Positions 46,779 through 59,319 of a stretch of DNA of 64,000 nucleotides are shown here, piece by piece. The stretch covers positions 1 to 64,000 of IMG/VR virus record IMGVR_UViG_3300032238_000599. One strand, written 5' to 3'. Source of the DNA: a virus. Numbering within the stretch: position 1 is the first letter of the stretch; each line of letters begins with the position of its first letter. The position numbers and the translations under genes are program-made. The notes under the pieces were generated by a model. That model saw nothing but the letters and a program-made list of their open reading frames with translations, ran no database searches and was not told the origin of the DNA.

Positions 46779-46781
46779 TTG

Positions 46782-47219
46782 ATGTCATGGTATTATCAAA
46801 ACTCAATAATCGAAACTCTACCCGAAGAATGTATAGGCTTCGTTTATTGTATCACTAATAACATCACTGGTCGCAAGTATATAGGCAAGAAATTAGCAAA
46901 ATTCTCTAAGACAACTTATAAAACAGTAAAACTCAAAAACGGCAACAAGAAGAAAAAACGGATTCGATCTAAAATCGATTCTGATTGGCGTGAATACTAT
47001 GGCAGCAACGACCAACTAAACAAAGACGTAGAACAACTAGGCGCAGAAAACTTTCACAGAGAGATACTTTATTACTGCACATCAAAGGCTGAATGTAGTT
47101 ATATCGAGGCTCGAGAACAATTCTCAAGGCGAGTATTAGAATCAGACGACTACTACAACGGACAAATCGCTGTTCGTGTACACGGCTCACATATTAAAGG
47201 CAAACAATTAAACGGTTAA
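46782..47219 (+). CDS. GIY-YIG endonuclease-like protein
   Basis: A 145-residue protein. The GIY-YIG core is at the N-terminus: GFVYCITNNITGRKYIGKK, with FVY in place of GIY and an intact YIG, followed by a basic insertion (KLKNGNKKKKRIRSKIDSDW) and the catalytic-arginine/glutamate region around WREYYGSND to AREQFSRRVL. Family members include T4 Seg homing endonucleases. The ATG at 46782 is preferred over the in-frame TTG at 46779. A 460-bp non-coding region with strong RNA structure follows directly. Homing or an RNA/DNA cutting role tied to that element is possible; a domesticated nuclease is an alternative. Confidence 0.8.
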   Translation: MSWYYQNSIIETLPEECIGFVYCITNNITGRKYIGKKLAKFSKTTYKTVKLKNGNKKKKRIRSKIDSDWREYYGSNDQLNKDVEQLGAENFHREILYYCTSKAECSYIEAREQFSRRVLESDDYYNGQIAVRVHGSHIKGKQLNG

Positions 47220-47220
47220 G

Positions 47221-47545
47221 GCAAGCGTCAGCTAATATCAGACGCCCTATACCTGGATCTTGGATCGCAGGGATGGAAAACTCTCGCCGTTAAGAGTGCT
47301 CAACCACTACCCGAAAGGATGAGGATCGCTTGTAAGCCCTGCGATTTGGTTGTTTGAAAAGGAAAGTATAGGCAAAAGGAAGGGAGAAAAACCCTACGTA
47401 TACGCTAGTGATAGCAGATTTGCGTATACCGCCGTTGTAAGAAGACGGAGCTCGTGGTACAGGACAACCGCCACTGTAATGCTCTACTGCTGTGTGACAT
47501 TGTGCAACTCAGATAATGTTTATTTTTAGCCCGGAAACGGGCTAA
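47221..47545 (+). ncRNA. putative structured RNA element, about 325 nt, with a possible pseudoknot
   Basis: No coding frame covers this stretch. Perfect helices in order: GCGTC 47225-47229 with GACGC 47241-47245; CCTATAC 47246-47252 with GTATAGG 47366-47372; nested inside it ATCGCAGGG 47264-47272 with CCCTGCGAT 47337-47345; CTCT/AGAG within (47281/47293); CAACCA 47301-47306 with TGGTTG 47347-47352, which crosses the 9-bp helix as a pseudoknot; AGGG/CCCT (47381/47392); GTATACGC 47398-47405 with GCGTATAC 47422-47429; GAGC and GTGG (47448, 47454) with CCAC and GCTC (47471, 47481); ACATT/AATGT (47497/47515); and TTAGCCCG-GAAA-CGGGCTAA 47526-47545. The GAAA loop favours the + strand. It does not match RNA families I know. 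Orientation, exact ends and function are inferred. Confidence 0.6.
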
Positions 47546-47574
47546 GTGTGACTGAACAATCTAGATAATATCTT

Positions 47575-47649
47575 AAGTGCTTCGCACTTCATTATAACTA
47601 GTAAAATGCGTTGAGCTTTAGCGAAAACGCAAGTGAGCTTCAGCTCACT
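47575..47649 (+). other. cluster of three hairpins between the RNA element and the next gene
   Basis: AAGTGC-TTC-GCACTT (47575-47589), GCGTT/AACGC (47608-47612 with 47626-47630) and AGTGAGCT-TC-AGCTCACT (47632-47649) follow each other in 75 bases. None has a T-run behind it, so they are not textbook terminators. They may protect RNA 3' ends or form the leader of the next gene. The 47546-47574 gap shows nothing else. Confidence 0.5.
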
Positions 47650-58263: not shown

Positions 58264-58319
58264 ATCTACATGCCGTAGATTTTATGCGGAAATCCAACCG
58301 CGTATGGCCTAGAACGCCA
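58264..58319 (+). other. leader with three tandem hairpins
   Basis: ATCTAC-ATGCC-GTAGAT (58264-58280), GCGG/CCGC (58286-58289 with 58298-58301, extendable by two pairs) and TGGC/GCCA (58305-58308 with 58316-58319) lie in a row upstream of the AAGGAG at 58328. They would form the 5' untranslated part of the mRNA for 58342-59319. Confidence 0.55.
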
Positions 58320-58341
58320 ACTTTCTTAAGGAGAAAACAAA

Positions 58342-59319
58342 ATGGGACGTCCTTTAAACAAAAAATATTTTGGTAACCGAAACATCGGTACCAACGGCTA
58401 TGTAACAGACAATAGCCCAAACGCTAATACACCAGAAGGTGATGATAAGATTGGTGGTGAAGGTATTGAATCTTACACACTACCAGTACAACTAGGTAGT
58501 ATCGAAGTTGATAGTAATAGCGGTCAACCAACATTAACAATTCCAGCACCGCAGATACCAGGCGGTGTACAAGCTACAGCTACAGTAGTTTGGGAAGTTG
58601 CAAGCATTACCATTAAAAATACAAATGACTATGGTACAAGCTATGTTAATGGCGAAACTGTAACATTTACAGGTGCTACTGGTGTAACTGCTACTGTTGC
58701 AGTTGCCGCAGACGACATTGGAGTTATTACCCCAGTTCTCCGCGGATCATTTACTACAATTCCATCGAGCGAATCATATAATATCATTGGCGCTGTAGGT
58801 AACGACGCACAAGCAGAAATTACTTGGCGTGTTAAATCTATTACTAAATTACAAAGAGGTTCAGGTTATACTACAGCTCCAACACTATCGTGGGCCGCTG
58901 GATTAGCTGGCGCAATTTCTGGAACAAGTCCAGGAGCTCCAACTGCGGTATTAACTGTTGATACAGGTGCAGTTGGTTCATCTACTAATCAAGAAAACGC
59001 AATTATTATTCGTGCTAACACTACTGATGATGGCACAAAAGTTGGCGATATTACTAAACAAACTAACACACGTAGCTACAAAGTTAAAACAGCAGACGGC
59101 ACAGCAGTTTGTAAACTAGTTGCAGACTCAACTCCAGGTTTTCAAGAAGCATATATTGTTGCTACTTCTGCATCGGGTGCTACATATTATGTTACTAAGC
59201 TAACAGGCCACAAAGCAACACTAGTAACAAAAACTGGTGACGGAGCATTAAATGGTAAAGCCGCTCCATGGACATTTAACTCAACAGCTAACGGTCGAGT
59301 AATCATCGAAAACGCATAA
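58342..59319 (+). CDS. capsid-adjacent structural protein with MGRPL start (325 aa)
   Basis: A 325-residue Thr/Ala/Gly-rich beta protein. The N-terminus is MGRPLNKKYFGNRNIG, then internal repeats (VVWEVASITIKN; ITWRVKSITKLQRGSGY; TAPTLSW) of the GxGY-AP type also seen in the giant protein. The C-terminal 90 residues (RSYKVKTADGT, CKLVADSTPG, PWTFNSTANGRVIIENA) form a module that recurs at the N-terminus of the next protein. I recall such MGRPLNKKYFG proteins as virion proteins in aquatic T4-like phages; head decoration is plausible. No T4 hoc/soc similarity is visible. Confidence 0.65.
   Translation: MGRPLNKKYFGNRNIGTNGYVTDNSPNANTPEGDDKIGGEGIESYTLPVQLGSIEVDSNSGQPTLTIPAPQIPGGVQATATVVWEVASITIKNTNDYGTSYVNGETVTFTGATGVTATVAVAADDIGVITPVLRGSFTTIPSSESYNIIGAVGNDAQAEITWRVKSITKLQRGSGYTTAPTLSWAAGLAGAISGTSPGAPTAVLTVDTGAVGSSTNQENAIIIRANTTDDGTKVGDITKQTNTRSYKVKTADGTAVCKLVADSTPGFQEAYIVATSASGATYYVTKLTGHKATLVTKTGDGALNGKAAPWTFNSTANGRVIIENA

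What the first reader, a model, noticed from the sequence alone, without database searches (positions are those of the whole stretch)
47221..47545. Large structured RNA, possibly pseudoknotted, beside a GIY-YIG nuclease
In a genome with almost no spacing, this stretch has no gene but holds perfect helices of 7, 9, 8 and 8 bp, a GAAA-capped stem and a 6-bp pairing (47301-47306 with 47347-47352) that crosses the 9-bp helix. It does not fit tmRNA, RNase P, tRNA or the group I/II cores I can recall. It could be a ribozyme, a mobile RNA element linked to the nuclease, or a regulatory RNA.
Basis: partly seen in the sequence, partly recalled or inferred. Interest (0 to 1): 0.75.

Follow-up and report, generated by a model that had tools for sequence, protein, structure and literature searches.

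The report
Nuclease-linked phage RNA with matched repeats
Beside a small DNA-cutting enzyme gene in a freshwater phage lies a real, pseudoknotted RNA of about 440 bases, of which only the first third was known; near its 3' end it carries the same 7-letter word twice, and the two copies change together in hundreds of phages, a pattern seldom if ever described and not yet explained.

Summary
The first third (47220-47355) is the orphan Rfam family Polynucleobacter-1 (RF01718, 115 bits). Roughly 300 related viral loci show that the conserved RNA continues to about 47650 (~440 nt).

Three things are new. (1) Two same-sense words near the 3' end (X1 47511-47517, X2 47563-47569, about 50 nt apart, hairpin between) change in step: identical in 165/166 and 101/102 loci, at least 37 changes on a tree; they are not complementary, and no other column follows them. 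(2) The RNA is beside a small nuclease: a SegE-like GIY-YIG gene, or, in all 5 confirmed loci without it, a PDDEXK_15 endonuclease. (3) Relatives in Burkholderiales islands lie between DUF6641 and a roughly 200-aa tyrosine recombinase and keep the rule. In 59 of 162 loci the next gene runs the other way, so it is not simply a 5' leader.

Best reading: a stand-alone structured RNA, probably partner of the neighbouring nuclease, with two duplicated recognition modules. Partnership and role of X are inferred. Known orphan family; new architecture.

The parts
46779..47219 (+). SegE-like GIY-YIG nuclease, 146 aa, nuclease domain only, directly upstream of the RNA
   Evidence: PF19835 E=5e-33; adjacent upstream in 230 and within about 1.8 kb in 252 of 275 phage loci
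47218..47652 (+). complete structured RNA (extended Polynucleobacter-1), about 440 nt
   Evidence: alignments and covariation; ends inferred from conservation, not mapped
47220..47355 (+). part covered by Rfam RF01718 Polynucleobacter-1
   Evidence: 115 bits, E=3e-24, full model 1-141
47221..47245 (+). hairpin P1 (47225-29/47241-45) with 2-bp pseudoknot 47221-22/47231-32
   Evidence: P1 99% paired, compensatory changes in 5/5 pairs; P0 97.5%
47252..47271 (+). hairpin P2 (CCUG-GAUC/GAUC-CAGG), leads into conserved CAGGGAUGGAAA
   Evidence: helices 3-4, 92% paired
47280..47297 (+). hairpin P3
   Evidence: helix 5
   Evidence: 97.9% paired, z=28
47382..47395 (+). hairpin P7
   Evidence: 67.5% paired, weaker
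47398..47429 (+). long hairpin P8
   Evidence: compensatory changes in all 11 counted pairs
47411..47493 (+). pseudoknot A: loop of P8 (47411-17) with 47487-93
   Evidence: 99.3% paired, 6/7 pairs compensatory
47434..47468 (+). pseudoknot B: 47434-38 with 47464-68, crossing P9 and P10
   Evidence: 96% paired, z=24
47448..47484 (+). helix P9 (47448-51/47481-84) enclosing P10 (47454-57/47471-74)
   Evidence: 97.5% paired, top covariation z=34
47505..47520 (+). module 1 with word X1 (AGATAAT at 47511-47517) after ACTC
   Evidence: in step with X2
47527..47544 (+). hairpin P11 between X1 and X2
   Evidence: 84% paired
47557..47572 (+). module 2 with word X2 (AGATAAT at 47563-47569) after ATCT
   Evidence: same-letter covariation 47511-47563 z=25, 47515-47567 z=19, 47512-47564 z=14
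47577..47587 (+). hairpin P12
   Evidence: helix 18
47608..47630 (+). hairpin P13 with GAGC..AGCGAAA internal loop, kept also in bacterial copies
47632..47649 (+). last hairpin P14, likely 3' end or terminator
   Evidence: compensatory changes in 6 of 7 pairs but register slips; not scored as a + strand terminator

Best explanation
A stand-alone noncoding RNA of about 440 nt (extended Polynucleobacter-1) that most likely works as the RNA partner of the small DNA nuclease encoded next to it. A pseudoknotted body (P1-P10) holds two duplicated 3' modules, each a helix, a GUGAC-like turn, ACUC or AUCU and the same 7-nt word. The two modules would present two identical recognition or guide-like words to two copies of the same partner, which forces X1 and X2 to stay identical. 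Shown: the RNA, its extent, pseudoknots, in-step repeats, near-fixed nuclease neighbour and its replacement by an unrelated nuclease. Inferred: nuclease and RNA act together; X is read as a pair; the target (DNA, RNA or protein).
For: Structure and covariation. X1 = X2 in 165/166 and 101/102 loci found with patterns that did not ask for identity; 37 or more in-step changes, 13/13 and 7/7 independent pairs; the only non-identical hits seen in later scans were plainly coding-sequence chance hits. The in-step block excludes the constant CTC/TCT and G/A differences inside it, so it is selection, not copying. segE beside the RNA in 230/275 loci; 5/5 confirmed segE-less RNAs have PDDEXK_15 (PF24608) beside them and no segE locus does (Fisher 6e-11 ignoring kinship); two of the arrangements are unlike (same strand after gp46; divergent, beside a helicase gene). 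Bacterial copies adjoin a catalytic-domain-only tyrosine recombinase. Precedent: an orphan RNA motif downstream of nuclease genes, RAGATH-18, proved to be a guide RNA (PMC11061315).
Against: SegE-like genes in other T4-like phages (453 records) stand elsewhere without this RNA, so the enzyme does not always need it. 22 loci have one or two genes between. No SegE residue follows the X word. X is not enriched elsewhere within about 10 kb and has no near-exact second site in this genome, so no target is seen. The nuclease slot could belong with gp46/gp47. In bacteria DUF6641, of unknown function, is the constant neighbour.
Confidence: 0.4

Rival explanations
1. A trans-acting structured RNA (scaffold or RNA-only complex, as GOLLD or ROOL) used in phage development, unrelated to the nuclease; adjacency is clade synteny. 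X1 and X2 bind the same separate partner.
For: Synteny gp47-gp46-segE-RNA is kept across the clade; 22 loci have genes between; SegE relatives exist without RNA.
Against: Unrelated nucleases replace segE exactly beside the RNA, in more than one arrangement.
Confidence: 0.32
2. An RNA-processing or splicing element: X1 and X2 are matched cut or join sites, and the hairpin between them is removed or the ends are joined; identity keeps the product or splint recognition constant.
For: Two equal words about 50 nt apart around a hairpin; constant differences only outside the 7-nt core.
Against: No complementary guide in the RNA follows X; no Rfam ribozyme or intron match.
Confidence: 0.12
3. A DNA-level site: X is the overlap of a recombinase or a strand-annealing site, which must match between partners; the RNA signal is separate.
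For: 7-nt identical core is the usual overlap size of tyrosine recombinases; such an enzyme is downstream in about 20 bacterial copies.
Against: No Phage_integrase in this phage genome though the rule holds there; variable cargo in bacteria begins after the RNA, not at X.
Confidence: 0.07
4. A cis-regulatory element of the operon (3' UTR of segE or leader of the next gene), as tabulated in 2010.
For: Follows segE by a few bases; listed as probable cis-regulator in PMC2864571.
Against: Next gene on the opposite strand in 59 of 162 loci; bacterial copies start divergently from DUF6641 and are followed by unrelated cargo in either direction.
Confidence: 0.09

Closest known systems
Polynucleobacter-1 RNA (Rfam RF01718; PMC2864571)
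   Same: 47220-47355 matches the whole 141-position model at 115 bits; bacterial relatives match at 70-104 bits
   Different: The model covers only the 5' third of one subclass; the 3' domain, pseudoknots A and B, the X repeats, two further 5' subclasses and the nuclease link are not in it
RAGATH-18 / IS607 TnpB reRNA and other OMEGA RNAs (PMC11061315)
   Same: Structured RNA fixed directly downstream of a nuclease gene, once an orphan motif
   Different: The nucleases here are small GIY-YIG or PD-(D/E)XK domains, no RuvC or HNH; two equal words instead of one guide; no target known
GOLLD and ROOL RNAs (PMC12286853)
   Same: Large ornate RNAs of phages and bacteria without known function
   Different: No Rfam match to either; about half the size or less; two same-sense repeats
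Bridge RNA of IS110 elements (own knowledge)
   Same: Two loops that must agree with each other because they read DNA partners that share sequence
   Different: No DEDD recombinase; different fold; no DNA targets found
Type III toxin-antitoxin RNAs (own knowledge)
   Same: Pseudoknotted RNA with same-sense repeats beside a nuclease gene
   Different: Antitoxin repeats are complete tandem units upstream of an RNase toxin; here only a short module is doubled and the enzymes look like DNases

Membership tests
Polynucleobacter-1 (RF01718) | covariance-model score above the gathering cut-off of 37 bits over the full model | tested here: met
   115 bits, positions 1-141
Polynucleobacter-1 (RF01718) | the family model describes the whole RNA | tested here: not met
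   conserved, covarying structure continues about 295 nt past the model's 3' end
tmRNA, tRNA, RNase P, group I or II intron, known ribozymes | Rfam or ARAGORN match | tested here: not met
   class-2 and L137-type RNAs also without match
OMEGA / TnpB-type RNA-guided nuclease | adjacent RuvC or HNH effector (TnpB, IscB) | tested here: not met
   adjacent genes are PF19835 GIY-YIG or PF24608 PDDEXK_15
OMEGA / TnpB-type RNA-guided nuclease | guide segment with a matching DNA target | tested here: inconclusive
   no second near-exact site for X in this genome, no enrichment in flanks; a 7-nt word is too short to exclude targets
Retron / DRT reverse-transcriptase RNAs | reverse transcriptase in the element | tested here: not met
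   no RVT_1 in the phage record
Type III toxin-antitoxin | tandem pseudoknot repeats upstream of an RNase toxin | tested here: not met
   gene order and repeat anatomy differ; toxicity not tested
Tyrosine-recombinase site | cognate recombinase encoded in the same genome | tested here: not met
   no PF00589 in the phage record; present beside most bacterial copies
5' leader / riboswitch | same-strand gene directly downstream in all members | tested here: not met
   opposite strand in 59 of 162 loci

The most novel reading that the evidence does not exclude
A new RNA-directed nuclease system: a pseudoknotted phage RNA with two identical short guide words that programmes small, unrelated nuclease domains (GIY-YIG or PD-(D/E)XK) in phages and, in Burkholderiales islands, a minimal tyrosine recombinase.
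Probability: 0.13. Interest if true: 0.95.

Novelty: new variant of a known kind. Interest (0 to 1): 0.68.

Why it matters
An orphan RNA motif of 2010 turns out to be the 5' third of a much larger RNA that is near-universal in a group of T4-like freshwater phages, shared with bacterial islands, and tied to DNA-cutting enzymes. Two separated RNA words that must stay identical, not complementary, are seldom if ever described (own knowledge); they give a clean, testable handle (mismatch, then restore) on what the RNA does. Orphan RNAs beside nucleases have before proved to be guides.

Tried and rejected
A third strand inside the locus that pairs with X: no column follows X. SegE residues that follow X: none. 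X as a repeated regulatory or promoter motif: no enrichment in flanks, none elsewhere in the genome. Reverse transcriptase, tyrosine recombinase or DUF6641 in this phage: none found (the DUF6641 control did not ring anywhere, so that one is weak). Relatives in cultured phages or plasmids by blastn: none. A weak manA match (15 bits) vanished in a narrower search. DUF6641 fold: model of moderate confidence (pLDDT 74), no PDB match with E <= 0.001. A looser scan for bacterial-type repeats in viral contigs gave only chance hits. Ribosome bypassing was considered because in phages X reads NNA-URA (codon plus stop about 50 nt apart around a hairpin), but the bacterial words lack the stop and there is no conserved frame. 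SegE beside an RNA in Melnitz, phiN3, S-SRM01 and others: gene present, no comparable non-coding stretch annotated.

Full report
Observation. The window is part of a 144,986-base virus record with T4-like gene order: gp47 and gp46 homologues, a small ORF, a SegE-like GIY-YIG gene (46779-47219, PF19835), then about 460 bases without a gene, then a late-type gene. cmscan gives one match above gathering score there: RF01718 Polynucleobacter-1 at 47220-47355, 115 bits. The 2010 source lists this motif with unproven function, Burkholderiales and fresh water (PMC2864571). Nothing in Rfam reaches threshold in the rest.

Extent and structure. A pattern from the 5' part found 76 viral contigs. Aligned, conservation does not stop at the Rfam boundary but runs on for almost 300 nt. 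On 138 distinct loci (effective number 96) mutual information shows helices P1-P14 and two new pseudoknots, 47411-17/47487-93 and 47434-38/47464-68. A formal count on 40 loci: 91 pairs, 88.0% paired, covariation 0.392 against 0.150 in shuffles, 67 pairs with compensatory change, slid controls about 40%. P7, P12 and P14 are weaker.

The in-step repeats. Near the 3' end stand ACTC-NNATNAT and, after a hairpin, TGTGAC...ATCT-NNATNAT. Scans that left the N letters free found the same letters in both copies in 165 of 166 loci and 101 of 102: AGA, GGA, GGG, AGG, GCA, GAA, GAG, ACG. Position by position offsets +4 to +10 are in step, -2, -1, +12 and +13 partly, while +1 to +3 (CTC against TCT) and, in this class, +11 (G against A) differ constantly. 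Gene conversion would not respect such borders. Same-letter covariation scores (z 14 to 25) equal those of Watson-Crick pairs. On a tree built without these columns the word changed at least 37 times; 13 of 13 and 7 of 7 independent pairs agree. No third column follows, so the partner is outside the locus or the two words meet directly. Burkholderiales copies use other words (AGCGAAA, AACAAAA, ATCAAAA, AGAGAAA, GGAGAAA, GGCGAAA), identical in 20 of 23 loci; exceptions L408, L416, L421.

Neighbours. Of 275 phage loci, 252 have segE upstream, 230 adjacent and 22 about 0.75-1.8 kb away. The four RNAs that lack it with enough upstream sequence (L044, L317, L137, L372) all have a PDDEXK_15 endonuclease (PF24608, E 1e-22 to 1e-25) immediately beside the RNA; a further scan added a fifth (L431). 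No segE locus has it. In L044, L317 and L431 it stands between gp46 and the RNA; in L137 and L372 it is divergent and gp46 is not in the held sequence. SegE relatives in 453 other phage records stand without such an RNA in the six regions read. In the genus of G372, 20 of 186 genomes carry the RNA; DUF6641 is divergent upstream in every locus examined, and a ~200-aa tyrosine recombinase follows in about 20. Variable cargo, in either direction, lies between RNA and recombinase.

Not a leader. The first ORF downstream is on the opposite strand in 59 of 162 phage loci. With the bacterial arrangement this argues for a separate trans-acting RNA.

Mechanism. X1 and X2 lie in a duplicated module (helix, GUGAC-like turn, ACUC or AUCU, word). 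Identity of two separated words is expected if both are read by the same partner, or if a copy of one must anneal to the other. Reverse transcriptase and tyrosine recombinase, which would give the second, were not found in the phage. The exchange of one nuclease for an unrelated one beside the RNA is the best hint to the partner. I therefore favour an RNA that works with the neighbouring nuclease (0.4), next a trans-acting RNA independent of it (0.32). What X touches is unknown.

Limits. Most loci are metagenomic contigs; kinship inflates simple counts, hence the tree test. No blastn relative in cultured phages or plasmids. Ends of the RNA are inferred from conservation. The ~300 loci include near relatives.

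Noticed in passing
58264-58344 +: Second Rfam element in the window: freshwater-2 RNA (RF02980, 72 bits), ending at an ATG, so probably a leader.
   Followed up: no
L279, L280, L282, L424-L427 (Burkholderiales genomes): Integrative element of about 7.5 kb: DUF6641, this RNA, variable cargo in either direction, ~200-aa tyrosine recombinase, unknown ORFs, AAA ATPase, ~424-aa integrase; two copies 18-21 kb apart in G475 and G491.
   Followed up: partly
46779-47219 +: PHROG 447 and many GenBank records call this GIY-YIG family 'NAD synthetase', apparently a misannotation.
   Followed up: no
L169, L291, L306, L343: Two further subclasses of the RNA share the 3' domain and X repeats but have other 5' domains; L169 was searched with a lax threshold and has no Rfam match.
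   Followed up: partly
L137, L372: Phages without segE carry a strongly diverged copy beside a PDDEXK_15 gene and a DnaB-like helicase gene.
   Followed up: partly
47608-47630 +: Hairpin with UGAGC..AGCGAAA internal loop, resembling half of a hammerhead core, kept in phage and bacterial copies.
   Followed up: no
47563-47569 and homologues: In phages the X word always reads NNA followed by UAA or UGA; bacterial words do not, so it is probably not a codon and stop.
   Followed up: partly
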